From: Sphingomonadales bacterium
GTDB taxonomy: Bacteria; Pseudomonadota; Alphaproteobacteria; Sphingomonadales; Sphingomonadaceae
DNA length: 64,000 nucleotides
Reading direction: 5' to 3'
Assembly (NCBI GenBank): GCA_027490095.1
Contig: JAIXYT010000051.1
Location: forward strand, 101,794-165,793
Made by a program: the position numbers and the translations under genes. Numbering within the stretch: the stretch's first letter is position 1; each line of letters starts with the position of its first letter. Positions 3,907 through 23,135 of the stretch are shown piece by piece. The notes below the pieces were generated by a model, which worked only from the letters and a program-made list of their open reading frames with translations, did no database searches and had not been told where the DNA came from.

Positions 3907-4456
3907 TCCTGCCAACAAGGCCCCGGTCCGCATCCGCGTGCGGCGCACCGTTGCTGACAACCCGACCATGGACGACCTGGAGGCCGCTGACGCGGCTTCC
4001 AGCGACCAGTCGGTCGAGGAGCGCCTGGTGGCCACGGAGCCCAGCGATCCCCCTGCTGGCAAGAAGAAGCGCAAGCCCAACAAGGGAAGCTTCAAGCCCG
4101 GGGTGTCCGGCAACAAAAATGGTCGCCCCAAGGGCGCCAAGGGCACCAAGACCATCGTCCGCAAGGTGCTGGGCGAGAAGGTGGAGATCCGGACCCCGGA
4201 AGGTCCCAAGAAGGTGACCCTGTTCGAGGGTCTCCTTCGCAAGGAGGTCCAGCGCGCCGCCGACGGCGACTGGCGCGCACGCAACACTGTGCTGATGCTC
4301 GCCCGCTGGGCGCTGCCCGAGCTGTCGCCCAGCGACAGTGATGCGGCTTCTGGAACTCCTGCTGTCGACACCGAGACCGACAACGCGATCATTGCCTGGT
4401 TCTCGGGCAAGCTGCTGGGCGGCGATGACGTCCCTGATGCAGGAGTGCCGCAGTGA
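3899..4456 (+). CDS. DUF5681 domain-containing protein
   Basis: 'FKPGVSGNKNGRPKGAKGTKT' motif typical of DUF5681; overlaps the neighbouring genes on both sides. Confidence 0.8.
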   Translation: MADPANKAPVRIRVRRTVADNPTMDDLEAADAASSDQSVEERLVATEPSDPPAGKKKRKPNKGSFKPGVSGNKNGRPKGAKGTKTIVRKVLGEKVEIRTPEGPKKVTLFEGLLRKEVQRAADGDWRARNTVLMLARWALPELSPSDSDAASGTPAVDTETDNAIIAWFSGKLLGGDDVPDAGVPQ

Positions 4457-5961
4457 GCGACCGTCAGGCAGCCCTTGCTGCACTCACCCGCCAGCACCTG
4501 TTCGTCATGCTGATGCGGGCGTTCGCCATGTTCCACCCGGGGCAGAGCCTGCAGCCCAGCTGGTATCTGGAGGCCACGTGCCACTGGCTGGAGGGGGTGG
4601 CGCTTGGCGAGCGTCCCCGCTCCATGATCTGGATCCAGCCACGGACCCTGAAGTCGTTCACGACCGCGGTGGTGTTCCCCTGCTGGGTGCTGGGCCGTAA
4701 TCCGTCCGCCAAGATCATGGTCGCAGCTTACGGCGAGGCCCTGTCACGCGAGCATGCCGAGAAGCGTCGACAGATCATGGAGAGCGACTGGTACAAAGCC
4801 CTGTTCCCGGGCACCCGGGTATCCGAGAGCCGCGTCCTCGAGCTGAAGACCACCAAAGGGGGCTCCTGCCAGGCGGTGTCGGTGGGTGGCCCGGTCACCG
4901 GACGCGGTGCCGATCTCATCATCCTCGACGACTGCATGAAGGCCGAGGACGTCACCAGCGAGGCGGAACGCGGCAACATCAAGAACTGGTTCTCCAACGC
5001 GCTCTCCACCCGGCTCAACGACAAGCGGGACGGCGCCATCGTCTCCATCCAGCAGCGGCTGCACGAGGATGACCTGCCCGCATACCTCGCCGACAAGGGT
5101 TACACCTGCCTCAACCTCCCGGCCGTGGCCGAAGAAGATCATCTTGTCGCCATCGGCTACAAGCACACCTACCTTCGCAAGGCCGGTGAGCTTCTGGACC
5201 CGGTGCGGTTCCCCCAGGAGGTGCTGGACCAGGAGCGGCTGAACCTTGGGCCCCAGGCCTATTCCGCGCAGTATCTCCAGAACCCGGTCTCGCCCGAAGG
5301 CAACCTGCTGCGCATGGAGCAGTTCCGGGTCTACCGTACCGACATCCCGCGCGAACGTTTCGACAAGGTCATCCAGAGCTGGGACACGGCAGCTTCCGAG
5401 CTTCCAACCTCCGATTACACGGTCGGCACCACCTGGGGCTATCTCGCGGGCCGGGTGTTCCTGCTGGACATCTACCGCAAGCGGGTCTCCTACCCGGACC
5501 TGAAACGGGCCGTGCTGGCGGCACAGCACAAGTGGCAGGCCGACATCGTGATCATCGAGAACGCCAGCACGGGCCAGGCGCTGCTCGGCGAACTGATCCG
5601 CATCAACAGGCCCTACCAGCTGTTCAGTGCGCCCATGGGCCGGCTCAAACAGCGCAGCAAGGAAGACCGGCTGATCGCCCAGACCGGGCAGATCGAAGAA
5701 GGCCGGGTCTGGCTGCCTGCCCGGCTCGACGGGCTGGACGTGTTCCGGAACGAGCTCAGGGCGTTCCCCAACGGGCGTCATGACGACTGCGTCGACACCC
5801 TCACCCAGCTGCTCGAACTCCTGATGCACCGCTGGCAGGAGTTCCACAAACGGTACACGCCCGAAGGGAGGCTGGTGGATCACATCCGCGGGGACAGGCC
5901 GCCGCTGCCGAAACTGCCGGCATGGATCGAGGGGGAGGAAGAGGAGGAAGGTGAATGCTAG
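4453..5961 (+). CDS. terL: Phage terminase large subunit
   Basis: 502 aa; terminase ATPase/nuclease signatures ('ADLIILDDCMKAEDVTSEAERGNIKNWFSNALSTRL', 'VIQSWDTAASELPTSDYTVGTTWG', 'HDDCVDTLTQLLE'). Confidence 0.88.
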   Translation: MSDRQAALAALTRQHLFVMLMRAFAMFHPGQSLQPSWYLEATCHWLEGVALGERPRSMIWIQPRTLKSFTTAVVFPCWVLGRNPSAKIMVAAYGEALSREHAEKRRQIMESDWYKALFPGTRVSESRVLELKTTKGGSCQAVSVGGPVTGRGADLIILDDCMKAEDVTSEAERGNIKNWFSNALSTRLNDKRDGAIVSIQQRLHEDDLPAYLADKGYTCLNLPAVAEEDHLVAIGYKHTYLRKAGELLDPVRFPQEVLDQERLNLGPQAYSAQYLQNPVSPEGNLLRMEQFRVYRTDIPRERFDKVIQSWDTAASELPTSDYTVGTTWGYLAGRVFLLDIYRKRVSYPDLKRAVLAAQHKWQADIVIIENASTGQALLGELIRINRPYQLFSAPMGRLKQRSKEDRLIAQTGQIEEGRVWLPARLDGLDVFRNELRAFPNGRHDDCVDTLTQLLELLMHRWQEFHKRYTPEGRLVDHIRGDRPPLPKLPAWIEGEEEEEGEC

Positions 5962-6114
5962 GAATTGACGACAAACCTGTTGCACCTCGCGTTCATAAGA
6001 CTGCTTAACGCGCCCATTTTGGTCACTCGGCCCAACGGCTGGCGCTCCCAATAGCCGCCACTGTCCCGAACTTCTCGGCGTCGTCGTGTTAGTCGAAAAC
6101 CAGCCCGTGACCGC

Positions 6115-8271
6115 TCAGGCGGCGAGGTGCTCGAGGTCGTAGCGCTTGAGCCAAGGCAGGAGGGGCTTCACTGAACTTGCTGGATAGCGCGAATTCCGTG
6201 CGAAATCGGCGACCCGCGCTAGCTCGTTTTTTAGGAAGTCCACCGCCACGTTCTCGGCTGAGATGTGCCCATCGGGCATCACGACGACGAAGTCGTAGAT
6301 GGTTGCGTGGTCCTTCCCCGGCGAACGACGCAGGATGCGGCCGCGACGCTGGATGAACTGCCGGGGATTGCGTGAGCTAGCGATTAGGTAGGCGGTCTGG
6401 CACGCTGGAACGTCGATGCCTTCGTCGAGACACTTAATCGCCACCATCGCCTCGGTCTCGCCGTCCTTAAACTGCCTGAGGATCTCGCGTCGCTGCCAAC
6501 GGTTCTCGTCGGAGGTGAAGGGGGAGACCCGCACGCCGCGGCGCAAAAGCATCTGCGCGACCGCATGCCGCTGCTTGACCTCAGCATAATCCGTATCGAC
6601 CTCGTCCTCGTAGTCATCATCGACGAGCGTCCTCCCGTCGCTGCAATAGAACAGCGAATGTCGTTCGACCTTCGATGTATCGAGCAGTCGCTCGAGCTCG
6701 ACCATCTTGTTTTCGGCCGCACCAACGAGCCGGGCCCGCCGCATCAAGAGCGCCTTCAGCCGCTCGCCGGAAGGTGAGCCCATGTCGCTCCGAGCAGCGG
6801 CGAACGCGCGCGCGATCTGATCACTGAGGTCCAGGTAGTCCTGAGCCTCCCGGTTCGTTAGCTCGACCGGGACGGGGATGTATTCGTAGGGCGTGAGGAC
6901 CTTGTCGCGAACCGCGTCCGCCAGCGAGTATTGGAAGATCGAGCGATCGTAAACATCCCTCAGACGCTGGTTCGCGGCATCATCGAGGTAATGGAAGGGC
7001 GTCGCCGAGAGGCCGAGCCGGAAGCGTGCGCCCGGCAGAAGCTTGCCGACGTAGCCCGCTCCCCCGTGATGGTGGCACTCATCTCCAATGAAGAAGAGTC
7101 GCTCGACGTCTAACTGTGAGGCGAAAGCTTGGAAGTGTGCCGACTTAAGGGTCCTATTGACCACGACGACCGCGAGGAACTCGCGCTGCCCACCTCGATT
7201 GCGTCTTAGATAGGCCTGCGCGACTGATTCCCACTCGGCCCGCGATCCGTAGCATCTGACCGCATGGATGTTGAAGCGCGCCAGCTCCTCGCACCACTGG
7301 TCGGCAAGGTCCTGGTAGGGAACAGCAACTACCAGCGCGATGCCTTCGTTAGCTTCGGCAGTGCGCGTCGCCGCGTAGATCGCGGTTATCGTCTTGCCGG
7401 CCCCCGTCGCGAGCTCTAGGATGCCATTATAGCCGTTCGCGCTCCAGGCCCGCAGCGCCTCGAGCTGGTGGTTTCGCATTGCGAAGGGCGAACCGTGCAC
7501 CGTGGCCGGCACCGAGGGCCGCGGAGAGCCTGGATCCATGCGCCGCCTAAAGAATGCGCGCACCCTTTCGTCCTCCTGCTCCGGCGAAGGCATCTCGGGG
7601 AACCGATCCATCACAAAGCGAAGTCCTGCATCGATGGCTTCCGGTACGCCGCATACTACCGTTGAGCTTCCGGTGTTCCCCGACCACAGTCGCTCGAATG
7701 CATCGGCGTGGTTTTGGACATAGGCGCGCTGCCCCTCGTTCCACGAACCGAAAACGGTAATTTCCTCAGAGTTGAACCTCGGGTCGAGCGCACTCATCGT
7801 CTCGTTCATCGATCCGCTAAATGAAACCATGTCGCCGAGTTTATCCTCGAGCAGGCCGATCTTCTGATGGAACATGCCCTTGGGGCGGACGGCGACCTTT
7901 ATCTCGAGCCGCCCGGCATTGAACAGCCACGCTAGCACTCTGATACGGAACTCGAGGAGATCACCGCGGTGCTCCCCAATGAGCCGCTCGAAACTTGGCA
8001 ATTCATCGTCAGACCAGGGCCGACTCTCGCCCTCCCGGATCGCTTCGAAGTCTTCAGGGGAGACCAGTTTGCCAAAGATCAACCTGATCCGCCCTTCGCC
8101 GGCGACGATCCCGGACATCGCGGCCGGGGCGTTGAGAAGCACCCCGAGCGAAAAGAAGCCCACGGCGCGCCGGTAATCCACAGCGCTGCTAAGAGACGGC
8201 AGGAAAAACTCCTCATAGAGGTTGTCCGTCTCGGATGAGTAGTTGGTCCTGAGACCGAGCTTGCGCAGCAT
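6115..8271 (-). CDS. DEAD/DEAH helicase with N-terminal phospholipase-D-like domain; putative phosphorothioation-system helicase
   Basis: 'FHQKIGLLEDKLGDMVSFSGSMNE' PLD/HKD-like; Walker A 'LATGAGKTITA', 'GDECHHHG', 'GLSATPF', 'QFIQRRGRILRRSPGK'; start ATG 8271 overlaps the upstream stop. Confidence 0.85.
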   Translation of the reverse strand: MLRKLGLRTNYSSETDNLYEEFFLPSLSSAVDYRRAVGFFSLGVLLNAPAAMSGIVAGEGRIRLIFGKLVSPEDFEAIREGESRPWSDDELPSFERLIGEHRGDLLEFRIRVLAWLFNAGRLEIKVAVRPKGMFHQKIGLLEDKLGDMVSFSGSMNETMSALDPRFNSEEITVFGSWNEGQRAYVQNHADAFERLWSGNTGSSTVVCGVPEAIDAGLRFVMDRFPEMPSPEQEDERVRAFFRRRMDPGSPRPSVPATVHGSPFAMRNHQLEALRAWSANGYNGILELATGAGKTITAIYAATRTAEANEGIALVVAVPYQDLADQWCEELARFNIHAVRCYGSRAEWESVAQAYLRRNRGGQREFLAVVVVNRTLKSAHFQAFASQLDVERLFFIGDECHHHGGAGYVGKLLPGARFRLGLSATPFHYLDDAANQRLRDVYDRSIFQYSLADAVRDKVLTPYEYIPVPVELTNREAQDYLDLSDQIARAFAAARSDMGSPSGERLKALLMRRARLVGAAENKMVELERLLDTSKVERHSLFYCSDGRTLVDDDYEDEVDTDYAEVKQRHAVAQMLLRRGVRVSPFTSDENRWQRREILRQFKDGETEAMVAIKCLDEGIDVPACQTAYLIASSRNPRQFIQRRGRILRRSPGKDHATIYDFVVVMPDGHISAENVAVDFLKNELARVADFARNSRYPASSVKPLLPWLKRYDLEHLAA

Positions 8272-8735
8272 CAGAAAGTCGGCACAACCACGTCCGGCGT
8301 TGGGCCGTCCGAGGCGGGTGGCCGGACGCCGATGGAGTTGAGCCCCTTCCAAACCGCATCCTCGACATCGAGATCCGCAAAGCGGTCGATCCACGATTGA
8401 ACGAGCTCGAGGCCACCGTTCGAGTATTCCTCGTAGATTTGGATGCAGTCCCGCTCACGGTCGGGCCTCAAAACGTCCGAGGTCTTGCTCTCGGCAAGTG
8501 CGAGGGCGAAGACCATATCCACCGCCTCGTTGATTTGGTATTGAGCGCCGGCAATGTCCTCGGTGCCCGCGTTGGGGTCCAGCGGCACGCGGCGACGCTC
8601 TTTGTAGCCAAGGATAGCGCAGAACGTCAGCGCCTCCCTGAGAGTCGGGAACATCGTGGCGTCCTTGCCGCCGAGTTTTTGCAGCGTCTGCTCGAACGAC
8701 TTGCTGCGCTTAACGGGAGCGTGGATCAGTCGCAT
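8271..8735 (-). CDS. dnd system-associated protein 4-like small protein
   Basis: 154 aa; 'LREALTFCAILGYKERRRVPL...IYEEYSNGGLELVQSWI' resembles the dnd_assoc_4 family; located between the dndD-like gene and the helicase. Confidence 0.65.
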   Translation of the reverse strand: MRLIHAPVKRSKSFEQTLQKLGGKDATMFPTLREALTFCAILGYKERRRVPLDPNAGTEDIAGAQYQINEAVDMVFALALAESKTSDVLRPDRERDCIQIYEEYSNGGLELVQSWIDRFADLDVEDAVWKGLNSIGVRPPASDGPTPDVVVPTF

Positions 8736-10765
8736 CAGCGCACCTCCGTTATCCGAGTGCCCTCGATCTCGCTGCCGTAGGTCGTGAGGTCGTAGGTCAC
8801 GCCGCGGATCTCCACCGTCTCAGCCTGCTTGCCGACGCCGTCGTGCTGACTGTTCCGGGTGAGGACGTATTCCTGGCCAATCTTATCCGCTAGGGTGGTC
8901 ATGACAACGTCGGAAGCTTGCGACGTCGACACCAGCAGGATCACCTGGGTCGCGAGATTGGGCAGGAACTCAGCGACGCCTCGCCGATAAAGAGGATCCA
9001 GGTGCCCGAAAGGTGAGTCGACTACGAGCGGTGCCACGGTGCCTGGCAGCAGAATATCGTCAGCCGCGTTCTCGCGCATCTTTGCATATTTTGCTATCGC
9101 CCCCGTGAAAGCGAGGCCGAGCAGTTGGTTCTCGCCGGTGCTCTTCGCCATCTCGGCGCCGCGCTCATCAAAAAGGCGCAGCTGGTAGTTGCGGTCCAGC
9201 TCGACCGTGGCCGGCTTGCGCATGAAGCGCTTCACGATTGCGTCGATCTCGCGTTCGATCGCTTCGCGCGCGCCCTCCTCCTCGGCCTTGAGCCTGCCTT
9301 CGAGCCTGGCGGTGAGCGCCGCGGCCAGCTGGGCACGCTTGACGAACCGCCGAGCGGCCTCTGACTTGCGCACCAGCTCATCACGCCGACCCTCATATTC
9401 AGATAGCGACCGGTCGAAGCCGTTGATGGCAGATTGAACGTCGACCTTCCGGCTCATTGCCTGATTGCGCTGCGACTTCGCGCGCTCGCGGGCAGCCTCT
9501 TTCTCCGCAATGTCTGTCACGGGATTGGCAGCCAGCTCCTTCGAGATCTCGAGCAGGTCGGCGTCAAGCTGCTGAATCTCGGCTTCGACCTTGCGCAGGT
9601 CTTCTGCGTTGCGTTCGTAGTCGCTCCACGCCCGCTCGGCGCGCTGCTCGAGGCGACCTAGCGCCGTACTCGTCGTCATAACGCGCGACATGACCGCCTG
9701 ATCGCCAGCGGTATCGAGCAAGGACTTGATGCGATCATATTCGATGCTGCCTTTCTCGATCTCGCGCCCGCATACACACCTCCCATCGGAGAGGATCTCG
9801 TCTACGAACTTCTGATCGTACGGGGCCGGCAGCTTCCCTCGGGTGTCCTCATTCTTGATTACGGCAGAAGCCTCGGCGACCAGTTCCTCCGCGAGCACGG
9901 AAGTCAGGAAGGTCTGCATCCATCCCTGGGAACGATGGAGCGCCTTCGCCCGCTCAGCCTCCCTCGTCGCCATCTGTGCCTCGATCCGAGCCCGGCGCGC
10001 CTGGGCTTCCTTGGCAGGCTTGGTCTCAGCGAGCTCTTGGTTGAGCTTGTCGATCCGTGCCGTTGCCGCCTCGATTTCCTCGTCTAACTTGAGAAGGTCC
10101 TCCCGAGCCTTTGCGATCCGGCGCGCCGCTTCCTCGATCGCGGCCTCCGCCTGTCGGGCCTCGTCACTGGTGTTGTCCGAGGCTTGCTTGTTGTAATCCT
10201 GCCAGGCCTTGCGGAGATCCTCGAGCGCCATCCGCGCGATCGTCGACCCGAGAATCCCCTTCACGGCCTCACCGAACTTCTTTGCGCCGGTCGAGCCCGT
10301 ATAGCGGCTCGTCGCCTCTCCGTAGAAGAAGAAGTGTGGGGCCATCTCCTTAGGGATGACGGAGTTGATGAAGCGGTCAGGCCGATCCTTGAAGACCGGG
10401 ACCTCGCCGCCGTCGACCAGCTCGCACAGCCGCAATGGGTTTGTCGTTTGCGTCTTCTGGTCGTAGCTGCGGCAGGCCCGATATGTCCGGCCCTCGTGGA
10501 TGAAGTCGATTTCGACGACCGTGCGATGCGCGCCGTCCTTCTCCGCCGCGAACGCGTTCACGAGGCGCGTCGGCCCTTCAAACTCGCTCTCGGGCGGCAG
10601 AATGCCAAAAAGGCACCAATTGATAGCGGCGAGCAAGCTGGTCTTTCCAACGCCATTCTCTGCGCGGATCAGCGTCAGGTTCTTGACCGGGTCCTTTGAG
10701 ACGAAGAAGTCGTTGACCCCGTAAAAGCTGCGCCAGTTCTCGATGCGGATGAACTCTATCAGCAT
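8735..10765 (-). CDS. dndD: DndD-like SMC/ABC ATPase (DNA sulfur modification)
   Basis: 676 aa; 'ENGVGKTSLLAAINWCLFG' Walker A, long coiled coil with 'CVCGRE' hook-like motif, 'STGENQLLGLAFTGAIA' signature, 'LVVDSPFGHLD' Walker B/D-loop. Confidence 0.85.
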   Translation of the reverse strand: MLIEFIRIENWRSFYGVNDFFVSKDPVKNLTLIRAENGVGKTSLLAAINWCLFGILPPESEFEGPTRLVNAFAAEKDGAHRTVVEIDFIHEGRTYRACRSYDQKTQTTNPLRLCELVDGGEVPVFKDRPDRFINSVIPKEMAPHFFFYGEATSRYTGSTGAKKFGEAVKGILGSTIARMALEDLRKAWQDYNKQASDNTSDEARQAEAAIEEAARRIAKAREDLLKLDEEIEAATARIDKLNQELAETKPAKEAQARRARIEAQMATREAERAKALHRSQGWMQTFLTSVLAEELVAEASAVIKNEDTRGKLPAPYDQKFVDEILSDGRCVCGREIEKGSIEYDRIKSLLDTAGDQAVMSRVMTTSTALGRLEQRAERAWSDYERNAEDLRKVEAEIQQLDADLLEISKELAANPVTDIAEKEAARERAKSQRNQAMSRKVDVQSAINGFDRSLSEYEGRRDELVRKSEAARRFVKRAQLAAALTARLEGRLKAEEEGAREAIEREIDAIVKRFMRKPATVELDRNYQLRLFDERGAEMAKSTGENQLLGLAFTGAIAKYAKMRENAADDILLPGTVAPLVVDSPFGHLDPLYRRGVAEFLPNLATQVILLVSTSQASDVVMTTLADKIGQEYVLTRNSQHDGVGKQAETVEIRGVTYDLTTYGSEIEGTRITEVR

Positions 10766-10768
10766 GTC

Positions 10769-10948
10769 TCAGACCCGGTCGATGCTAGCTTCGATGATCT
10801 TCTTAACCTCCGCCGGAATGCCTTTGCTCGACTCCCCGTTTTGCAGGAAGTTGCCCCGCACCTTGTCGACAACCTGCCGGATGATTTTGTCCATCTCGCG
10901 CTCGTCGAACGCCTGCACGCCCTGCGCCGAACCGCCTTCTACCTCCAC
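10769..10948 (-). CDS. Small ORF (59 aa) between the dndC-like and dndD-like genes, not in the supplied ORF track
   Basis: GTG start at 10948 preceded by GAGGGGG; in-frame TGA four codons upstream; translation (M)EVEGGSAQGVQAFDEREMDKIIRQVVDKVRGNFLQNGESSKGIPAEVKKIIEASIDRV; stop 3 nt before the dndD start. Confidence 0.6.
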   Translation of the reverse strand: MEVEGGSAQGVQAFDEREMDKIIRQVVDKVRGNFLQNGESSKGIPAEVKKIIEASIDRV

Positions 10949-11044
10949 AGGTCCCCCTCAAGCAAACCTACTAAGAACGCCATAGCCTGGAAGGTGCCCG
11001 AAGGCGATGTACCATTCAAGGTCAAGTTCGCTAAGGCATCGCCG

Positions 11045-11875
11045 CTACTTGTGGCATGCGAGGCAAACCTTGGCCTGACCGTAGAGCTCGTCAATGTCCA
11101 TCTCACCGGCGCCGGGGCGTAGCGGATTGACGCGGCGCTTGGCGGCGGCACGCTCGACACGCTTTTGATGCTCCGCCCTTATCTGCGCGATGCGTTCGGG
11201 ACGGGCGAGTTCGTCTAGCGACTCGCCGGCACTCCAGGTGAACGGAGAGCCATGTTCGAGCGCATTCTTCTCATAGGATCGCGCCTCGTCGAAGCTGTCT
11301 GGATGCCGCTCCATCAGCCGCACCCACTCGATCTTCTGCTGGAAGAAGCAGAACGTGCAGCCCGATCGTGACCGCCACTCGTAATAGCTCGGAAGCCCGA
11401 GACCACTCGCCTCGAGTGTGTCGATTACCCCCGCCTTGTCGATACCTGCTTCCCGGAAAGGCAACGAAACCGTCAGGTTGGGGTGCGTGGAAGAATAGCC
11501 TTCCCGGTAATTCTCATCCGAGCGGATGGCGACATAGCTGACGACGCGATCGCCAGCATCGAGCGCCGGCCACAGCCACTTCTCGAAAGGTAGGATCTTC
11601 AGCTGCCGCGTGCACCACCTCGTACGCGGGCTAGGCAAGAAGTTGTTATACTGCCGCAGCCAAAAATCGAAGTCGCGGTCCGGGTTAAGCCGTTCGATGG
11701 GCCTCCCGAGGAAACCCTCGAGGCGACCCAGATACTCGTAGACTTCCGGAAGCTCCTTACCGGTGTCGGTAAAGAAGTATTCCATCTCCAATTCGGGACG
11801 GGTGCGGGCCATGTGGACGGCAAGCGCAGCGCTATCTCTGCCGCCCGACAGTCCCAGCACATGACGCATCCTCAT
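11045..11875 (-). CDS. dndC: DndC-like phosphoadenosine phosphosulfate reductase family protein (PP-loop, Fe-S cysteines)
   Basis: 276 aa; 'VLGLSGGRDSAALA' PP-loop; 'RWCTRQLK', 'GCTFCFFQQKIEW', 'CLACHK'. Confidence 0.82.
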   Translation of the reverse strand: MRMRHVLGLSGGRDSAALAVHMARTRPELEMEYFFTDTGKELPEVYEYLGRLEGFLGRPIERLNPDRDFDFWLRQYNNFLPSPRTRWCTRQLKILPFEKWLWPALDAGDRVVSYVAIRSDENYREGYSSTHPNLTVSLPFREAGIDKAGVIDTLEASGLGLPSYYEWRSRSGCTFCFFQQKIEWVRLMERHPDSFDEARSYEKNALEHGSPFTWSAGESLDELARPERIAQIRAEHQKRVERAAAKRRVNPLRPGAGEMDIDELYGQAKVCLACHK

Positions 11876-14800
11876 CGTGCACCTCCGGCGGCCCGGCGGC
11901 GGTCGCCTTCGGTCCCGTTCTCCTCCGCAAGAGAAGCCGCCAACTCGACGGCGGCGGCAAGCGCTACCTCGCGCGACACCTCGCCGCCAACGACCGCGCG
12001 CAGCGAGGCGGCCAGCTCGCGAGCGCGGGCGAGTTCCTCGGCGTCGATGCTGACCTCAGGCGTGATCAGACCCCCGCGGGCCGGGTCCGACATGTAGACC
12101 GCGAACGCGAACCTGCCGTCCCCACGACCCTGCACGTGGGCCAGGCCCTCGGCACGCAGGAACTCTCGCGCGAGCGCTGCCAGTTCGACGCGCGCCGCGT
12201 CGACGTCCCGGTCCACCCAGTCGCGGGGCGGGCGGTTAGCTGCGAGGCTCGCGATCCCCTCGATCGCCTCCCTGCTATCATCGAACGTGGACAAGCGAGC
12301 TGCGAAAGCGTCCAGCCTGAAGTTGCCGGTGACGCCCATCACCGCCTTCGCGCGTCGCCGCAACTCCTTCACGCTATCCCGATCTCGAACCCGAAGCTCG
12401 CGAACCAGCAGGTCACGCAGGTCTGCGAGCATTGCCGGGTAGAGACCTGCAAGCTGGGCAAGCCCTGTCCTTAGACCTTCGATGAGGTCACCAACCTCCG
12501 CACCGCGACCCGCCATCCGCGGAAGATCGTCCAGCATGAACTTGTTAGGATCGTGGGCTGATAGGGCGAGATCCCGCACGCGGAGTGCCGGCGGGTCCAG
12601 CCTCTGCGTCCGGCGCACCCAGGCAGGTGCCTCCATCACTAGCGCGACAAGCTGCCGCCCCACTGAGAGAGGATCAATCCAGCCGGAGACGGTGCCGCCC
12701 GACAGCTCCGCGACCACGCCCGCGATCCCCCGCAGGATGGCCGTGTCCCGGGCGCTCAGCTCGCTAAGGCGCAACCTGACCGAGGACGCGTCCTGGAGTA
12801 GTCGATCCACAAGCAGGTCGGTCACGCTCGAGCAGAAGACGCCGTCGAGGTAGACGGACGAGCGCGCACGTTCGGCTAGTACGAAAGCGAGGCCAAGTAT
12901 CGGCAAAAGTCCGTCCTTCACCCCGTAAGGGCGAGCCCGCCACAGCGCAAAGAGGTCGTCGAGGCCAAGTCCAGCTGAGCCACGCTCGACCAACAACCCC
13001 TGCGCAGCCGACCAGAGCGGCGACAGCTGGTGGCCGGTGTGGTCGGGTTCCGGAGGGTAGAAGCCGAACGCGCCGTCCTCACCGCGCCGGTGCAGGCCCG
13101 TCCGTTCGAGGATCGCGGAGTAAAGTCCGCCCTCCGCAGGGAAGTCGACGATCCCGAGCCGCGGTTCCTCAGCACGTGACGCCATCGCCACCATAAGCGT
13201 CCTCATCGCCGCCATCGCGTTCGACGACGGCTTCGCGCGGTTTAGGAGCTCGTTCCTGATCCTCGGGGACTCGGGATAGAGGGCGGATGCCATGCGCGAG
13301 GCGATCACCGACAGTCCGGCCGCAGCCGACGCGCGCAGCTCGTCCCCGCTCACGGCGGGCACACGCCAAGCGGTGGTTGCCAAACCCAACCTGAGGCGGT
13401 CCTCGAGCTCGCCCGCGACGCGTGCCAGCCTGCTCGCTACCTCGCGGCGGGCAACAGCGTCTCCCTTGAGTTCCGGCCGGGTCGCCTGCACCCGTTCGAG
13501 CGCCACAAGCTCGTGGCTCAGCTCGCGTAGCATGTAGCTGTCGCCGGACAGCCCAAGCGCGACCGGCAGGTCGCCGATCCGCCCAGCAACCCGGTCCATG
13601 CTGCGCCGGACCCGCGCCGGATTTTCACCCGCCTCGTTGATGAGCAAGAGGAAAAGGCCCGCAGCCCCGGAGCCGGGCCTGAACGCCCCGACCCGCTGCT
13701 CGGCCTGCTCGAACGTCGCGACGTCGACCTCGAACCAACGCATGGCCCCGGTCTCGTGGTATTCACGCTTCGCCAGGATGGGCGTGAGGACCCCGGTCGC
13801 TCGAAGCCGCCCGTAGTCGCACGTCGGCATCTCAGCACGCGCTTCCTCGACTGCAGCCTCGATGTCAAAATCGGAGCCCGCATAGACCGCGTATGCGCCG
13901 AGATGGCGCCGGAACACGATCGCCGAGCGGCGCGCGAGAGCCTCCAGGGCCCGGTGCGCGTCCTCGAGATCGATGCTGAGCCCGGCCGCGACCAGCTCAG
14001 GACTTGCCGACAGCCCCGAGCGCTCCCGGAAAAGGTCGAGAAGCGCGACCGTCTTCAAGACCGCCAGCTCGGCCTGGCTGGCACCGCGCTCCTCCACTCG
14101 CTCGACGGCATCCACGGCGATCGACCAGCGGTGCCCGTCGGGCGAGGCCAAGATGGAGGGCTCCAGGTTCGCGCGGAGATAGCTCCACAGCCATACCGGG
14201 TCGTAGAGGCTCCGCGCGTCGGCCGGGACGGACCGCAAAAAGTCTTGGAAGCCGAAGGGCTCGGCAGAACCGAGGAAACCGAAGATGCTCCGCTGGTTCT
14301 GACCGAACCGGCGACGCGACAAGGGGCCGAGCAGGCAAGCGACAACCGGACTCAGCGGCCAGCAGCGACGAAGGCGCTCGCGCAGCTCCTCCGTCCTGCC
14401 GCCGCGACCGAGCGTCTCGGCGACGACATCCACCGAACGGACCTCCCCAGAAGGCCTAGATTCTATCGCCCGCGAGAGCAGCTCGACTTGCTCCTCGGCG
14501 GTTGGCGCTAGCGGCACGTCGACGAAGCGACCCTGGATCTTCAGCCAGTCGTCCCTCGTCTCGCGTGCCAGGCGATAGGCGTAGTCGTCGAACGCCTGGT
14601 GGAGCACGCCGACAACAACGAGCCTGCCACCGGAGCGGTTGGCGGCTTCGGCGAGCTCCTGGAAGAAGAACGCATCCCCTCCACCCGTCGCCGCGTGTTC
14701 GAGCAGCTTTCCCATCTCGTCGATGATAAGCAACAGTCCGCACGTCTCTTCGGCCGCCATCCTCGACAATTCACGGATGGTGTCCGACATGGCGAATTGG

Positions 14801-15201
14801 CCGGGCAGCGCTTCCGCGATCACCGCGGCCGCGGCGGCGCGCCGCCCCACCACCGGCACCACGCGCCAACCTTCCACCTGCCAGCGCATGGCGTCGGCCA
14901 ACCGGGCCCGCAGGCCGTCGGGCAAAGCCGCCAAGGCATGGTCGCGCGTGGCGCCGGCAGCACCGAGCGCCGCTGACAGCACGACCGCGAGCGTCGACTT
15001 CCCACAGCCATAGGGTCCGGTCCAGGTGAAGGCGCAGTGCCCGAGCGAAGAGACGTGGTCGATCGTCGTCTGGATCGCCTGCGAGGTCGTTGCGGTGCAA
15101 ACGAATCCCTCGACCTCGTCGGCCCCGGCGTCCGCACCAACGCGCACCGACCGCCGGAATCGGCGGCGGACCGAGACGAGATCTGACAGCGTGCCGGTCA
15201 T
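11872..15201 (-). CDS. Large P-loop ATPase of the phosphorothioation-like cluster
   Basis: ~1109 aa from ATG 15201; Walker A 'WTGPYGCGKSTLAVVLSAAL', Walker B 'GLLLIIDEMGKLLEHA'; ATGA overlaps with both neighbouring genes. Confidence 0.75.
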   Translation of the reverse strand: MTGTLSDLVSVRRRFRRSVRVGADAGADEVEGFVCTATTSQAIQTTIDHVSSLGHCAFTWTGPYGCGKSTLAVVLSAALGAAGATRDHALAALPDGLRARLADAMRWQVEGWRVVPVVGRRAAAAAVIAEALPGQFAMSDTIRELSRMAAEETCGLLLIIDEMGKLLEHAATGGGDAFFFQELAEAANRSGGRLVVVGVLHQAFDDYAYRLARETRDDWLKIQGRFVDVPLAPTAEEQVELLSRAIESRPSGEVRSVDVVAETLGRGGRTEELRERLRRCWPLSPVVACLLGPLSRRRFGQNQRSIFGFLGSAEPFGFQDFLRSVPADARSLYDPVWLWSYLRANLEPSILASPDGHRWSIAVDAVERVEERGASQAELAVLKTVALLDLFRERSGLSASPELVAAGLSIDLEDAHRALEALARRSAIVFRRHLGAYAVYAGSDFDIEAAVEEARAEMPTCDYGRLRATGVLTPILAKREYHETGAMRWFEVDVATFEQAEQRVGAFRPGSGAAGLFLLLINEAGENPARVRRSMDRVAGRIGDLPVALGLSGDSYMLRELSHELVALERVQATRPELKGDAVARREVASRLARVAGELEDRLRLGLATTAWRVPAVSGDELRASAAAGLSVIASRMASALYPESPRIRNELLNRAKPSSNAMAAMRTLMVAMASRAEEPRLGIVDFPAEGGLYSAILERTGLHRRGEDGAFGFYPPEPDHTGHQLSPLWSAAQGLLVERGSAGLGLDDLFALWRARPYGVKDGLLPILGLAFVLAERARSSVYLDGVFCSSVTDLLVDRLLQDASSVRLRLSELSARDTAILRGIAGVVAELSGGTVSGWIDPLSVGRQLVALVMEAPAWVRRTQRLDPPALRVRDLALSAHDPNKFMLDDLPRMAGRGAEVGDLIEGLRTGLAQLAGLYPAMLADLRDLLVRELRVRDRDSVKELRRRAKAVMGVTGNFRLDAFAARLSTFDDSREAIEGIASLAANRPPRDWVDRDVDAARVELAALAREFLRAEGLAHVQGRGDGRFAFAVYMSDPARGGLITPEVSIDAEELARARELAASLRAVVGGEVSREVALAAAVELAASLAEENGTEGDRRRAAGGAR

Positions 15202-16136
15202 GCCGCCTCCGCCATATCCGGAAAGAGGCCATCGAGCAGGGGCAGGGTGTCGATCGAACAAACCTCCACGCGGGCCGAAACCTGCCGGAGTCCCGCGCCC
15301 TCGTCCCACACCAGGGATCCGCCCGTCACCTGAGCGATGCATTCCAGCCGTTCGGCAAGCGACTCCTCGTCCATAAGGAACACGCGCCCGGGCGAGCCCG
15401 GCTCATGGGCGACCGTCTCGATCGAGAGCGTTCCACGTGTGGGGAAGTGGGCCTGCCAGAACTCCACCAACGCGAAGGCGAACACCTCGTCCGGCAGCGA
15501 CGGCTTGGGCCCGCGCCTGAACTGCAACGCCCCTCCAGCGAGCGGCGCGACCAGCCCCAACTCGGCGAACGGGCTCTCGAGCCCATCCTCGATGACGCCC
15601 TTCCGGGACGACCGGCTGACGTAGGTCCGGACGAAGCACTCCGCGTCCCTGTCGACGGTCGCGCGCGCAATCCGCCCGGTCGCTAGCCGACCACCATCGC
15701 GCAGTTCCTCGATGCGCGCCATCAGCCGCGCAGCGAGGGTCTCCCGAGTGAAGATCGCGTCGTTGAACTCGCTGAACGCGAAATACCACATCGTGGCGCG
15801 CCCGGGCACTGCGGCAAGCCGCCAATGCAGGATCCAAAGAGAGCCCGGATGTTCCAAGAACGGATCCCCTCTTCCGAAGATCATTCTGGCGATAGGAGAA
15901 ATGGTGAGAAGCTCGATACGGCCACCCCTGATGCTCGCCTCAAGCACTCCACACGCAATTGCCCAATGACGCATCGCCGCCACCATATTCTTGCCGATAC
16001 CAAAATCAGCAATGGCCTGATTGGGGTTGAATACAGCCATGATCCGATCATGGCCCTCACCTTCGACTTCTTGCACGGCGTCGAACGACTTCTTCAACCA
16101 ACCATAGCGGCATGGAAAGGTCTCGTGTCCCGACAT
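15198..16136 (-). CDS. DUF4007 family protein
   Basis: 'MSGHETFPCRYGWLKKSFDAVQEV...IADFGIGKNMVAAMRHWAIACGVLE' is typical of DUF4007; first gene of the minus-strand cluster. Confidence 0.8.
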   Translation of the reverse strand: MSGHETFPCRYGWLKKSFDAVQEVEGEGHDRIMAVFNPNQAIADFGIGKNMVAAMRHWAIACGVLEASIRGGRIELLTISPIARMIFGRGDPFLEHPGSLWILHWRLAAVPGRATMWYFAFSEFNDAIFTRETLAARLMARIEELRDGGRLATGRIARATVDRDAECFVRTYVSRSSRKGVIEDGLESPFAELGLVAPLAGGALQFRRGPKPSLPDEVFAFALVEFWQAHFPTRGTLSIETVAHEPGSPGRVFLMDEESLAERLECIAQVTGGSLVWDEGAGLRQVSARVEVCSIDTLPLLDGLFPDMAEAA

Positions 16137-16188
16137 TTGCAGACGGGTGTCGGGTCGATCAAGCAGACTCCGCAATTCCACCCCTTTC

Positions 16189-16220
16189 GCTAACTGGACA
16201 AATCCTCCAGCGAGGTTAGC
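16189..16220. promoter_or_regulatory. Inverted repeat GCTAAC-N20-GTTAGC in the divergent intergenic region
   Basis: Read directly; lies between the DUF4007 and cysteine desulfurase starts. Confidence 0.35.
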
Positions 16221-16234
16221 TTGACGCGGCGCTG

Positions 16235-17422
16235 GTGACAACCGCCAGCGCGGCTTTTCGGCAGAAGGAGGCGAAGCTGATCTATCTCGACCACCAAGCG
16301 TCGACGCCCATGCACCCGCGCGCAGCCGCCGCGATGCGCGCCTCCGTAGAGGAAAACTTCGCGAACCCCCATGCGTCGGAGCACGCATTTGGCTGGGGAG
16401 CCGGTGACGCAGTCGAGCAAGCCCGAGACAGCGTCTCCGAAGCGCTTGGGGCTGATCCCGATGAAATCGTCTTTACGTCAGGCGCGACCGAGGCGGACAA
16501 CATAGCGCTTCTCGGGTTGGGCGACCCGTCGACGCATAGGCGTCGCATCGTCATCGGAGCCATCGAGCACAAGGCGGTGATCGGGCCGGCGAGGGAGCTC
16601 GCCCGCCGGGGCTACGAGGTCGCCAAAGTCGGCGTAACACGGGGCGGCGTCGTCGATGCCGAGGAACTTGAGCGCCTTGTCAACGAGGACACGCTGCTTG
16701 TCTCCCTCATGCTCGTGAACAATGAGATCGGGACCGTGCAACCCGTACAGCGCGCAGCCGCCGCTTGCGCGCGAGAAGGTGCACTCCTGCATGTCGATGC
16801 GGCCCAAGCGCTTGGATGGATGCCTATTGACGCCGTCGCGCTCGGCGCAGACCTGATGAGCCTGTCTGCCCACAAGATGGGAGGACCCAAAGGCGTCGGC
16901 GCCCTTTTTGTGCGCCGCGAAGTTCGCCAGAGACTTCAGCCCATCATGCATGGCGGCGAGCAGGAAGACGGGCTGAGGCCTGGCACTTTGCCAACACCAC
17001 TCTGCGTTGCATTCGGGGTCGCGTGCGAGGAGCTGCCAGACGAGAACGAGATCGCCGCCTGGCGTGAGCGGAGCCGCAGGCTCGAGGCCGGATTGCTAAC
17101 GCTATGGCCGGGAGCATGGATAAACGGAGCCGACGCCCCCCGCCACCCCGGCGCAAGCAGCGTCACGTTCCCGGGACTCTACGCGGATCAGCTCGTCGCG
17201 CAGCTGCAGCCGCATGTCGCGGTGGCGAGGGGGTCGGCCTGCACCTCGGGCACACCCGAGCCCAGCCACGTGCTCCGGGCGATTGGACTCGCTCCCGACC
17301 TTTGCAACGCAACGATCCGAGTCAGCGTCGGAAGGTTCACACAGGACAGAGAGATCGAACAGGCGCTCTCCGCCTTCGCAACTGCGCTGTCGCGCGCAAT
17401 CAGACAGCCTGGGATAGCTTAG
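16235..17422 (+). CDS. Cysteine desulfurase (DndA/IscS/NifS-like)
   Basis: 'IYLDHQASTPMHPRA', 'TSGATEADNIAL', 'HVDAAQALG', 'SLSAHKMGGPKGVGAL', 'ARGSACTSG'. Confidence 0.92.
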   Translation: MTTASAAFRQKEAKLIYLDHQASTPMHPRAAAAMRASVEENFANPHASEHAFGWGAGDAVEQARDSVSEALGADPDEIVFTSGATEADNIALLGLGDPSTHRRRIVIGAIEHKAVIGPARELARRGYEVAKVGVTRGGVVDAEELERLVNEDTLLVSLMLVNNEIGTVQPVQRAAAACAREGALLHVDAAQALGWMPIDAVALGADLMSLSAHKMGGPKGVGALFVRREVRQRLQPIMHGGEQEDGLRPGTLPTPLCVAFGVACEELPDENEIAAWRERSRRLEAGLLTLWPGAWINGADAPRHPGASSVTFPGLYADQLVAQLQPHVAVARGSACTSGTPEPSHVLRAIGLAPDLCNATIRVSVGRFTQDREIEQALSAFATALSRAIRQPGIA

Positions 17423-17562
17423 CCAGAAGGGGCGATTGCGGCTCGAGCGGCTGCGCAAGCGGCGGCCGGTCAATTCGCTAAGGACGTGACACAAAACGTT
17501 CGACGATCGTTACATCATCGAAGAACCCGCAGGCGAGTGCGCGACCTGCCATAAACTAAGTG

Positions 17563-19905
17563 TCAGGGCTTCGCCGGAGTATCCGGGCCGAGCCAACCAA
17601 TTAGATTGTCATAGGCCAGCTCGGCGAGGCGCGTCGAACGCCGATCTATGGTTTCCACGGTCCAATCAGCGGTGTGAGCGGCAATCGACCGGCACATCGG
17701 CATATAGGCGGAGCTCGCCAGTATGGTATCGCCGGTCACGCTGACGGCAAGACCGGCCGGCTGAAATTCGGTGCGCACGGATTCAGCCTCGGCGTCAGTC
17801 GCGGCCGAGAAGAAACGATAGAGCAGCAGCTTGTGCGCCCAAGTCCGGTTGCTGACATATTCATTGGCGGCACGCGGCAACAATGTCAGATTGCCGAGCC
17901 GGTTGAAGGCCTCTTGGCCGGGTTCATAGATCGCAGGATCCCATCCATTCGAACGGGCTTGGGGGGCGACATGCTCGACCGTGAACACGGTATCGTTGCG
18001 CCAGGCGTCCGTCCGCATGGTGGAGGCTATACCGGGCCGTCCGCGTTCGATGAGACCCAAATCCTTGGCATCGGGGGTGGTGTCGTGGCTGGCGCAAATC
18101 ACAAGGAATTTCGCAACTTCGCGCGAGTGCTGATAGATTGGCACCCGGCTCGCAGCCTTCACCCACTCCTCTTTCGTCGGAAACTCCTTGACCAAACGGC
18201 GCCGCAGCAGCCGGCGATAATTGGTAAGTGAAGGAACACCGCGGACGGGCCCCACGCGCTTGGCGAGCGGCGGGATGCTCGCGCCGGGCTCGCCATCCCG
18301 CATGATCGTCCGGTAGAGCATGTCGATATTCTCGGTGCCACCCTTGGCGCCGCGCCAGAGCATCGAGAAAGCGGTCGTTGCCTTGATAGCGTCTCCGAGG
18401 TCGCTAGCGCGAGCTGACGCTTCCTCCGGGCTAGCGCGCCTCAGCTCATCATAAAAGCGAGAGATCGCGCCGATCACGACATTATGCTTCAGATTTCGCA
18501 GCGCTTGAAAGGCGAAGCCGGTGGCATCGTCGAAGTTGACGACACCCTCGATCCGCGGCGCTTCGTCGAGCGGGACTGTCCAGCCCGTTTCCATGAAGGT
18601 CGCAAGATTAGCCATAGAAACCACGGCATTCCGCTTCTCGTCGATTGTCTGAAGCTTGTCGAACGTATCGCGCAGGTAGCGGCGTTGGTCGCTGAGGTTC
18701 TTCTGAAGCTTGTCGCCCGTCTCGGCGAGCGCGAACGGGATCAGCATTTCGGCGGTGGCCCGCTGCCGGTCATCTGCCTTCTTGAAGGCTTCGAGATAGC
18801 GGTCGATGCGGCTGAGGCCTTCGTGCGAGGGCGAGTTTTCAAACAGCTCGAGCGTCTCGGCTTCGATAACCTTAGGCCGGAATGTCTCATAGGCAGTGAG
18901 GGGCTCGCCGGTGGTGTTCAGCGCTTCGAACATATCGAAGGCGTCGTCCTCGGTGCGAGTGGTCACGACAGTCAGCGCCATGCGAGTACAGAAATACTTG
19001 AAAAGGATTAGCGTCCTAAGCAGTTGGACATAGTGGGGGAAAAACCGGCTGTCAGACCCCTCGGTGGTGAACTTGACGACCGCCTCTGGTGCTGGAAATG
19101 ACCACAATGATTCGACATAGGCCGGCTTATTGATCAGTTGCTGCACGTCAGGAAAGTCATGTTTTCCAGGTGAGCGAACGATATTCCGGAGCTGACTGCC
19201 GATATAGTCGAAGACATCGACAATAGGCTGATGCTTAGGGTCAGGCTTACCGTCCGTTGTTCTCAACTGGTGTTTGAAATCCTTCCTTTCGTCAGAAGGT
19301 TGCTCGACGTGCAGGACGTAGGCCCAGATGAGTGCGGCGATAGGCGAATTGTAAACAGCTTGGTTCTGGCGCTTCGACCAGACATCCTCCATCGCTCGAA
19401 TGACACGCGGATAGTGACGATAGACCGGCGGTGTGCCAACGGCCTGCTCCAGCACGAATGTCCGCCACAGTTCGACCAGCGCCTGTTGGGCCTGTTCCCG
19501 GATCCACTCAAATTCCTCACCTTGGGCAATACCAAGGCGGCCCAGGAGACTACGGATTTGGGCGTGGAGCGCGATGTTGATCATCGCGGACGTGCTTATC
19601 CTCTGCTGGCCGTCAATAATTGTCATCACTCGCTGCGCGACTTCCGACTTGTAGACCGGCTTGACAGTAATGAATTGCGTATCGTGGATCGCGATGAGTG
19701 TACCAAGAAAACTAATCGCGTCGGGACGAGTGAGGAGGTGGTTGAGTCCATTGATAACGTCTTCGAAGAGCCGGTCGACATTGTCCTTGTCCCAGGCATA
19801 GGCGCGCTGATAGGCTGGGATGTAGCATCCTTGACCGACGGTACTGAGGAACGCTTGGATGTTCTCGGCCTTGGCAGTGAAAATCTGATCGATCTGAACC
19901 GTCAT
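17563..19905 (-). CDS. DUF262 domain protein with C-terminal HNH/DUF1524-like nuclease motif (SspE/GmrSD-like)
   Basis: 'YIPAYQRAYAWDKDNVDRLFEDV', 'IIDGQQRIST' and 'FTVEHVAPQ...FNRLGNLTLLPRAANEYVSNR'. Confidence 0.82.
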   Translation of the reverse strand: MTVQIDQIFTAKAENIQAFLSTVGQGCYIPAYQRAYAWDKDNVDRLFEDVINGLNHLLTRPDAISFLGTLIAIHDTQFITVKPVYKSEVAQRVMTIIDGQQRISTSAMINIALHAQIRSLLGRLGIAQGEEFEWIREQAQQALVELWRTFVLEQAVGTPPVYRHYPRVIRAMEDVWSKRQNQAVYNSPIAALIWAYVLHVEQPSDERKDFKHQLRTTDGKPDPKHQPIVDVFDYIGSQLRNIVRSPGKHDFPDVQQLINKPAYVESLWSFPAPEAVVKFTTEGSDSRFFPHYVQLLRTLILFKYFCTRMALTVVTTRTEDDAFDMFEALNTTGEPLTAYETFRPKVIEAETLELFENSPSHEGLSRIDRYLEAFKKADDRQRATAEMLIPFALAETGDKLQKNLSDQRRYLRDTFDKLQTIDEKRNAVVSMANLATFMETGWTVPLDEAPRIEGVVNFDDATGFAFQALRNLKHNVVIGAISRFYDELRRASPEEASARASDLGDAIKATTAFSMLWRGAKGGTENIDMLYRTIMRDGEPGASIPPLAKRVGPVRGVPSLTNYRRLLRRRLVKEFPTKEEWVKAASRVPIYQHSREVAKFLVICASHDTTPDAKDLGLIERGRPGIASTMRTDAWRNDTVFTVEHVAPQARSNGWDPAIYEPGQEAFNRLGNLTLLPRAANEYVSNRTWAHKLLLYRFFSAATDAEAESVRTEFQPAGLAVSVTGDTILASSAYMPMCRSIAAHTADWTVETIDRRSTRLAELAYDNLIGWLGPDTPAKP

Positions 19906-20377
19906 GTTCTTCCAGTCTCTTCTCGCCGTCGGCATTCCGATTCGGGTCCGCGTCGCTTAACCGTCTACTGAAACTGCTTTCGTTCCACCATGCGCGGTGC
20001 ATTGGTCACCGACCCGAGAAGCTAGAGGGCAACTCATGCCGGAGCCGTACCTCGATGCCGAGCTAAAGAGACGGTTCGCGCATTAAGTAAGCGTCCACTT
20101 CGACGACGTGAATGGGCGCACACTGAACTTCCCTCGTGCAGCGCCTGCGTGCGTCGTCGTTATCCTGGCTGACTCCAAGCGGAACTCCCGTGCGTTCGCT
20201 ACTCTCAGGCCCTCATTCAGGCGCCGCCCGATAGTGTCACAGCGACGTCCGTAGTAGGCCTCCAGCGATCTCATAGCGGCCGGTCCGTGCCCGGTCCCCT
20301 AGCTGACATTCCACTCGACTTGCCTCTGCAAGCAAGCATTGCTGACTGCGCGCCGAACGGGTGAGTGGCAGGCGCAC

Positions 20378-20455
20378 AGCCCCTGGAGGTCACGTACCTC
20401 GGGGCTTTGGGTGGTGGGAGCAGCGAGGTGCTGCTCCAGAACCAGGAGACCACCC
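20378..20455 (+). promoter_or_regulatory. Structured 5' leader of the DUF3489-DUF2924-recombinase operon
   Basis: Hairpin AGCCCC..AGGT-cacgt-ACCT.GGGGCT-TTT (20378-20408), then GGAGCAGC-gaggt-GCTGCTCC (20417-20437) enclosed by GGGTGGT/ACCACCC (20409-20415/20449-20455) ending at the ATG. Confidence 0.55.
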
Positions 20456-20746
20456 ATGCCCAAGACCTCCAACAAGCCTGCCGCCGATCAGCAGCAGGAC
20501 CGCCCCGCATCCGCAGAGCTCGGCACGCGCAAGCCAAGCAAGCTTGACCTGATTGCAGAACGGCTTCGCGCCCCGATGGGAGCCACGCTCGACGAACTGA
20601 TGACAGCAACTGGTTGGCAGTCACACAGCGTCAGGGCCAGCATGACCGGCCTGCGGAAGCAGGGCCACAGCATTGTTCGTACGACCGGCAATGGCATCAC
20701 CCGCTTCGCCATTGCTGCTCCGGCCTCCACTTCCACGGACGCCTGA
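20456..20746 (+). CDS. DUF3489 domain-containing protein
   Basis: 'KLDLIAERLRAPMGATLDELMTATGWQSHSVRASMTGLRKQGHSI'. Confidence 0.85.
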   Translation: MPKTSNKPAADQQQDRPASAELGTRKPSKLDLIAERLRAPMGATLDELMTATGWQSHSVRASMTGLRKQGHSIVRTTGNGITRFAIAAPASTSTDA

Positions 20747-22860: not shown

Positions 22861-23059
22861 GGCAGCTGACGGCGCCGCGATGCGGCCAGCCGGCTCAACA
22901 ACGTATAGACTCGGCGAAATCGCCTTCTGAGACAGGGGGCGATTTTCGGGGAATTCCGCCCTGCTCCAGAGAGTCTCTGGTCTACACGCTTCCGCAAAGG
23001 CACGGAAAAGGCCGGCGAATTCGGCGGTGCAGCGAAAAGGCTGAATCACGCAGAACGGC

Positions 23060-23135
<76 letters not shown>

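What the first reader, a model, noticed from the sequence alone, without database searches (positions are those of the whole stretch)
6115..17422. Atypical DNA-phosphorothioation-like defence operon built around DUF4007 and a giant ATPase
Seen: seven minus-strand ORFs in the order DUF4007, ~1110-aa P-loop ATPase, short PP-loop/Fe-S DndC-like protein, 59-aa ORF, DndD-like SMC ATPase, dnd-assoc-4-like protein, PLD-helicase. Start/stop codons overlap (ATGA or TGATG) at 15198-15201, 11872-11875, 8735 and 8271, so the genes are probably co-expressed. A cysteine desulfurase diverges from the first gene. Known: DndA/C/D (or SspA/C/D) chemistry moves cysteine sulfur onto DNA backbones, and archaeal DndCDEA-PbeABCD is a PT system that blocks replication rather than cutting. 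Inference: this is a Dnd/Pbe-related module whose exact composition differs from canonical DndABCDE-FGH and SspABCD-E.
Basis: partly seen in the sequence, partly recalled or inferred. Interest (0 to 1): 0.85.

Follow-up and report, generated by a model that had tools for sequence, protein, structure and literature searches.

The report
Ssp sulfur-DNA defence with Pbe arm
This is a mobile bacterial anti-virus locus that combines a known DNA-sulfur-marking enzyme set (SspABCD) with two different attack arms (SspE and PbeABCD); the Ssp-Pbe pairing turns out to be widespread, and I found no published description of it.

Summary
The genes are real and co-oriented as described, but they are not Dnd genes. 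DUF4007 is SspB, the "giant ATPase" is SspC, the "DndC-like" protein is SspD and the diverging desulfurase is SspA: a complete single-strand phosphorothioation (PT) writer. The 59-aa ORF, "DndD-like" ATPase, "dnd-assoc-4" and PLD-helicase are PbeB, PbeC (CxC Zn-hook ABC ATPase), PbeD (DndE-like fold) and PbeA (PLD nuclease plus SF2 helicase): a complete PbeABCD module, known so far as the partner of the double-strand writer DndCDEA. In 79 PbeC loci examined, 50 have Ssp within about 10 kb, 11 have Dnd, none have both. Ssp-Pbe occurs in at least ten phyla, in tandem and convergent layouts, and the two modules evolve separately (identity rank correlation 0.22 between modules, 0.84-0.92 within). 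Published surveys left most sspBCD and most pbeAC without a partner; this pairing explains part of both gaps. The locus sits on a ~66-kb island inserted at tRNA-Lys. Parts known, combination apparently undescribed: a new variant of a known kind. Antiviral function and PT chemistry here are inferred, not shown.

The parts
16235..17422 (+). sspA, cysteine desulfurase (sulfur donor), diverging from sspB
   Evidence: PADLOC SspA 421 bits, DndA 406; PLP lysine motif SAHKMGGPKG and catalytic GSAC
16137..16234 (.). about 98-bp divergent intergenic region between sspA and sspB, presumed promoter region
   Evidence: gene coordinates; no consensus promoter was found there
15198..16136 (-). sspB (DUF4007), triple-wHTH DNA nickase / target recognition
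   Evidence: Pfam DUF4007 7e-75, PADLOC SspB 317 bits, matches solved SspB 6juf at 5e-33
11872..15201 (-). sspC, about 1109-aa ORC/Cdc6-type AAA+ ATPase
   Evidence: PADLOC SspC 1180 bits, BrxC 360; Walker A GPYGCGKS
11045..11875 (-). sspD, PP-loop ATP pyrophosphatase / sulfur transferase
   Evidence: PADLOC SspD 445 bits over its full length, DndC only 23; SGGRDS, CTFC, CLAC
10769..10948 (-). pbeB, 59-aa small protein
   Evidence: 62-75% identical in L026-L029; the same position holds a PbeB-like ORF in Ssp-linked, Dnd-linked and archaeal loci
8735..10765 (-). pbeC, CxC-type (Zn-hook) ABC ATPase
   Evidence: PADLOC PbeC 777 bits against DndD 152; CVCG at residues 330-333, CxC in 78 of 79 homologues
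8271..8735 (-). pbeD (dnd_assoc_4), DndE-like fold
   Evidence: TIGR04062 2e-15 but below its cut-off; AF2 model pLDDT 88; the four best of 350,542 PDB chains are all DndE
6115..8271 (-). pbeA, PLD/HKD nuclease domain plus SF2 helicase
   Evidence: PADLOC PbeA 759 bits; H135, K137, G153, S154, N156, N167, E169 invariant in 49 homologues; model matches NucT, Zucchini and SauUSI
   Evidence: PADLOC SspE 876 bits, PDB SspE 491-561 bits; PAYQR, DGQQR and HNH motifs intact
21069..22577 (+). large serine recombinase near the island end
   Evidence: Pfam Resolvase 2e-38, Recombinase 2e-16
23060..23135 (-). tRNA-Lys(TTT), insertion site of the island
   Evidence: ARAGORN; homology with four genus mates begins exactly at 23060
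1..23059 (.). right part of a ~66-kb genomic island that carries the system (left end about 42.6 kb before the window start)
   Evidence: empty site in genus mate G788 (L148); GC 0.60-0.65 against 0.68-0.70

Best explanation
A composite PT-based restriction-modification locus: one writer, two effectors. SspA takes sulfur from cysteine, SspD carries it, SspB nicks and selects the target and SspC supplies ATP-driven scanning, so that host DNA carries single-strand PT marks. SspE senses PT, hydrolyses GTP and nicks invading DNA. PbeABCD is a second arm: the CxC ABC ATPase PbeC with the DndE-like PbeD scans DNA and reads whether it carries the mark, PbeB regulates or tunes the complex, and the PLD-helicase PbeA translocates on DNA and cuts or blocks DNA judged foreign. 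Shown here by sequence or structure: identity, completeness and intact motifs of all nine genes, and repeated Ssp-Pbe linkage with Ssp and Dnd excluding each other at Pbe loci. From the literature on homologues: SspABCD chemistry, SspE mechanism, PT-dependent replication block by PbeABCD. Inferred: that Pbe reads the Ssp mark, the division of labour inside Pbe, and DNA cutting by PbeA.
For: Profile identities and motifs. SspE matches solved SspE; its motifs sit at the offset expected for Y30/Q31 and D96GQQR100. Of 79 PbeC loci 50 have Ssp, 11 Dnd, 0 both; P = 4e-6 if independent, against 10 of 385 class genomes with SspD at all. About 20 of 50 loci are tandem Ssp>Pbe, five of them with touching or overlapping sspD/pbeA ORFs, and 27 are convergent. 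SspE co-occurs in 11 of the 50. The two modules re-pair: identity correlation 0.22 between and 0.84-0.92 within modules. PbeD has a DndE-like fold; PbeA has a PLD nuclease fold with an invariant active site. Literature: most sspBCD without sspE/sspFGH, 58% of pbeAC without dndCD, two effectors can share one Ssp writer.
Against: No phage or PT assay. PbeABCD has been tested only with DndCDEA, where no viral DNA cleavage was seen. 18 of 79 Pbe loci have neither writer nearby, although a writer lies elsewhere in several of those genomes. The seed alignment was mostly from Ssp-linked loci, so the 50/79 is not an unbiased frequency. Weak correlation between modules would also fit plain neighbours in a defence island. 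Foldseek E-values for PbeD against DndE are only 0.3-1.7.
Confidence: 0.74

Rival explanations
1. Two independent defence systems that merely sit side by side: SspABCD-SspE, and a stand-alone PbeABCD (CxC) system that does not use the PT mark.
For: The modules evolve independently; 18 of 79 Pbe loci have no writer nearby; published argument that CxC systems occur without Dnd and may act on their own; the locus lies on a mobile island.
Against: Ssp and Dnd exclude each other at Pbe loci (0 of 79 with both); linkage recurs in at least ten phyla with touching or overlapping sspD/pbeA ORFs; in archaea Pbe needs PT.
Confidence: 0.18
2. PbeCD is an extra target-selection arm for modification: like DndD-DndE, it would guide SspD to a second motif, so Pbe widens PT marking rather than restricting.
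For: PbeD has a DndE-like fold and PbeC is the cognate of DndD.
Against: In the archaeal system DndCDEA alone modifies DNA, and pbeB, pbeC and pbeD are needed for defence; PbeA carries a nuclease fold.
Confidence: 0.06
3. A BREX type 4 or SspABCD-SspFGH system under other names.
For: SspC also matches BrxC (360 bits); BREX4 shares SspB/C/D homologues; SspFGH can share a writer with SspE.
Against: No PglZ, BrxL or FtsK-like gene in the locus; SspC fits SspC profiles far better (1180 bits); SspFGH is described as lacking homology to annotated genes apart from Walker A and FtsK, unlike Pbe.
Confidence: 0.02

Closest known systems
SspABCD-SspE (Vibrio, Streptomyces, E. coli)
   Same: Complete sspA, sspBCD and sspE with intact PT-sensing, NTPase and HNH motifs
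   Different: Adds a complete PbeABCD module directly downstream of sspD
DndCDEA-PbeABCD (haloarchaea and bacteria; CxC-DndE system of Rakesh et al. 2024)
   Same: PbeA, PbeB, PbeC and PbeD all present, CxC hook, DndE-like PbeD, HKD-SF2 PbeA
   Different: The writer is SspABCD (single-strand PT), not DndCDEA (double-strand PT); Pbe gene order is B-C-D-A
SspABCD-SspFGH (Vibrio anguillarum FF-93)
   Same: SspBCD writer with a multi-gene restriction arm, able to coexist with SspE
   Different: SspFGH (Walker A SspF, FtsK-like SspH) is unrelated to Pbe as described
BREX type 4 (BrxP/BrxC/PglZ/BrxL)
   Same: Shares homologues of SspB, SspC and SspD
   Different: No PglZ or BrxL here; separate SspB and SspD genes
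SauUSI (ATP-dependent type IV restriction enzyme)
   Same: PLD nuclease plus SF2 helicase in one protein, like PbeA
   Different: A lone enzyme that cuts modified DNA; not part of a PT system

Membership tests
SspABCD PT writer | Four genes sspA-D with SspB (DUF4007), large SspC ATPase, short SspD PP-loop, cysteine desulfurase | tested here: met
SspABCD PT writer | Single-strand PT at 5'-CpsCA-3' | not testable with these tools
   Needs LC-MS/MS or mapping; the motif of this SspB is unknown
SspE | DUF262 NTPase with PT-sensing YQ patch and DGQQR, DUF1524 HNH | tested here: met
   Full-length match to PDB SspE; motifs at 40 (PAYQR), 108 (DGQQR), 654 (EHVAPQ), 678 (NRLGNL)
PbeABCD | PbeC is a CxC ABC ATPase | tested here: met
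   CVCG at 330, CxC in 78 of 79 homologues
PbeABCD | PbeA = HKD nuclease + SF2 helicase | tested here: met
PbeABCD | PbeD is a DndE cognate | tested here: inconclusive
   The four best PDB hits are all DndE, but E-values are 0.3-1.7; hhalign P 0.004, probability 8%
PbeABCD | Small PbeB present | tested here: met
   59-aa ORF, conserved family upstream of pbeC
PbeABCD | Pairs with DndCDEA | tested here: not met
   No Dnd writer at the locus; only a 93-bit DndC-like protein, below the family cut-off, elsewhere in the genome
PbeABCD | PT-dependent block of virus replication | not testable with these tools
   Needs phage assays
Dnd (DndABCDE / DndFGH) | DndC, DndD, DndE homologues over curated cut-offs | tested here: not met
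   DndC 18.9 of 290 bits, DndD 139.8 of 246 bits, no DndE hit
SspFGH | Walker A SspF, FtsK-like SspH | tested here: not met
   No FtsK-like gene in the locus; family description
BREX type 4 | PglZ and BrxL | tested here: not met
   Absent among the locus proteins

The most novel reading that the evidence does not exclude
PbeABCD is a writer-agnostic PT reader-effector: the same machine works with single-strand PT made by SspABCD and double-strand PT made by Dnd, two unrelated target-selection machineries, so it must recognise something common to both (the PT backbone or a nicked intermediate, through the DndE-like PbeD) rather than a sequence motif. Ssp-Pbe would then be a main resolution of the 'orphan' sspBCD and 'solitary' pbeAC seen in earlier surveys.
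Probability: 0.35. Interest if true: 0.74.

Novelty: new variant of a known kind. Interest (0 to 1): 0.58.

Why it matters
Two published surveys left open what partners most sspBCD (84% without sspE or sspFGH, as printed) and most pbeAC (58% without dndCD) have. A widespread, repeatedly re-formed Ssp-Pbe pairing gives both a concrete, testable answer. It also poses a sharp question: how does one effector complex read marks made by two unrelated writers, one single-stranded and one double-stranded? A locus with SspABCD, SspE and PbeABCD together is a compact test bed, since each arm can be removed in turn.

Tried and rejected
Dnd membership of the PP-loop and SMC-like proteins: rejected on scores. 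SspFGH: my first guess for the three downstream genes; rejected after reading its description. BREX4: rejected for lack of PglZ/BrxL. Claim that Ssp-linked PbeC arose at least twice: the tree puts Dnd-linked rows between two Ssp clades (4 changes) but an AU test did not reject a single clade (p 0.051), so I do not claim it. PbeD against DndE by hhalign was weak; the predicted structure was more telling. My first labels marked Dnd loci as 'Ssp-Dnd' because the SspD profile also hits DndC; corrected. No real PbeC in viral contigs: 12 weak hits, at most about 240 residues of the ATPase N-terminus. No match in phage records; one plasmid record, Rhizobium indigoferae, itself Ssp-linked. Promoter/terminator scans no better than shuffles. 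No duplicated tRNA-Lys end found at the left boundary of the island.
Full report
What is there. The seven minus-strand ORFs and the diverging desulfurase are intact and overlap as described. Profile scans identify all of them. SspE matches solved SspE over its full length and SspB matches solved SspB 6juf. The SspE residues known to sense PT (Y30, Q31) and to hydrolyse GTP (D96GQQR100) in the Streptomyces protein have counterparts at a constant offset of 12 (PAYQR with Y42, DGQQR at 108), and the HNH residues are present.

The Pbe module is complete. The 59-aa ORF is PbeB: it is 62-75% identical in four close loci, and a 50-100-aa ORF with a recognisable family pattern sits just before pbeC in nearly all related loci, Ssp-linked, Dnd-linked and archaeal alike. 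PbeC carries the CxC hook (CVCG at 330), found in 78 of 79 homologues. PbeD was modelled from 61 sequences (pLDDT 88); the four best of 350,542 PDB chains are all DndE (TM 0.55-0.61 on the target), though with E-values of 0.3-1.7; profile comparison alone was weak. The N-terminal domain of PbeA (pLDDT 83) matches PLD nucleases NucT and Zucchini and the PLD-helicase restriction enzyme SauUSI (E 5e-6 to 2e-5); H135, K137, G153, S154, N156, N167 and E169 are invariant in 49 homologues. That favours the nuclease view of Rakesh et al. over the original 'no nuclease site' view.

The pairing is not a one-off. A scan of 85,000 species' genomes with PbeC gave 77 loci. In a set of 79 PbeC loci (scan loci long enough to score, plus the window and loci found otherwise) 50 have Ssp, 11 have Dnd, none have both and 18 have neither within view (first count: 46, 11 and 20 of 77). 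If independent, zero overlap has P = 4e-6, with the caution that related loci are not independent. SspD is found in 10 of 385 genomes of the class at all, and three of those ten loci carry Pbe (window, L016, L018). The 50 Ssp-Pbe loci lie in Pseudomonadota, Acidobacteriota, Actinomycetota, Planctomycetota, Verrucomicrobiota, Nitrospinota, Binatota, Latescibacterota, Poribacteria, Rhodothermota and a divergent Bacillota case. Layouts: 27 convergent, about 20 tandem Ssp then Pbe (five with touching or overlapping sspD/pbeA ORFs), two Pbe then Ssp, one divergent. SspE is present in 11 of the 50. Of the 20 scan loci with neither writer in view, five genomes have SspD elsewhere and DndC turned up elsewhere in at least five.

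The modules swap. Across 45 Ssp-Pbe loci, pairwise identities correlate within modules (PbeC-PbeA 0.84, SspC-SspB 0.92) but hardly between them (PbeC-SspC 0.22, PbeA-SspB 0.35). For example, against the window, L032 has SspC 61% but PbeC 35%, while L029 has SspC 34% but PbeC 70%. So the pairing is kept while the partners are exchanged. Whether Ssp linkage of PbeC arose once or more is open: the tree suggests more than once, the AU test does not reject once (p 0.051).

Context. The locus lies on a genomic island. In four genus mates, homology starts exactly at 23060, the 3' end of tRNA-Lys. In G788 the empty site shows the gene that lies about 42.6 kb left of our window start next to tRNA-Lys, which gives an island of about 66 kb. 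Its GC is 0.60-0.65 against 0.68-0.70 outside. It has a serine recombinase at 21069-22577 and phage-type genes (terminase, ParB-fused methylase) at 2293-5961. Nearest relatives by PbeC and SspBCD are Alphaproteobacteria such as Sphingobium algorifonticola (L027, PbeC 82%, SspD 88%, same order); the host is probably one as well (inference).

Mechanism. Writer: SspA-D as established for homologues. Effector 1: SspE. Effector 2: PbeABCD, inferred to read absence or presence of PT through PbeC-PbeD and to translocate and cut or block through PbeA. In haloarchaea PbeABCD needs PT in the host and blocks virus replication; DndE-type proteins prefer nicked DNA, and SspB makes nicks, which suggests, but does not show, a common handle. 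One Ssp writer can serve two effectors at once with additive protection, as shown for SspE plus SspFGH.

Novelty. Each module is known. I found no description of the pairing in the open library: nine papers mention both SspABCD and PbeABCD, and those I read treat them as separate systems; the 2026 BREX survey does not mention Pbe. A microbiome survey counted pbe together with any PT genes without separating ssp. The SspFGH paper found 2211 of 2678 sspBCD without sspFGH or sspE and proposed unknown restriction partners; the Pbe paper found 58% of pbeAC without dndCD and proposed other modifications, and does not mention Ssp. Subscription papers were not available, so an earlier mention cannot be excluded. 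The 50/79 figure is biased by the seed alignment, mostly from Ssp-linked loci.

Noticed in passing
L014:2797-7201, L015:11879-16296, L019:10154-14506, L021:362-4836: In other SspABCD loci of the same class that lack Pbe, a conserved three-gene set sits next to sspD: SF2 helicase (~540 aa), GHKL/HATPase ATPase (~600 aa, MzaB-like) and a PLD-nuclease-like protein (~310 aa; HAK and GSAN in all four). It does not fit the description of SspFGH and may be a further un-named Ssp partner.
   Followed up: partly
L015:10011-11791 and L016:10744-12521: A 173-aa ORF and a ~420-aa DndB-family protein follow sspD directly, in one Pbe and one non-Pbe Ssp locus.
   Followed up: no
own genome, L023:5211-6611 (C39): A 466-aa DndC-like PP-loop protein (103 bits in PADLOC, below the NCBIfam DndC cut-off) next to a 926-aa ORF without PADLOC hits, far from the Ssp locus.
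   Followed up: no
window 23060-23135 and L147:10293-11429: tRNA-Lys(TTT) is an integration hot spot in this genus: one genus mate has a tyrosine integrase beside the same tRNA.
   Followed up: partly
window 2293-5961: ParB-like N-terminus fused to an N6/N4 methylase, followed by DUF5681 and a terminase large subunit, on the island and convergent with pbeA.
   Followed up: no
L028: Novosphingobium percolationis has pbeB and a PbeC match that ends at residue 476, with no PbeD, PbeA or Ssp nearby: probably a decayed or interrupted copy.
   Followed up: no
L094: Very divergent Ssp-Pbe operon in a Bacilli MAG (SspB 26%, SspC 22% identity) in the order SspD-B-C-A-PbeA-PbeC.
   Followed up: no
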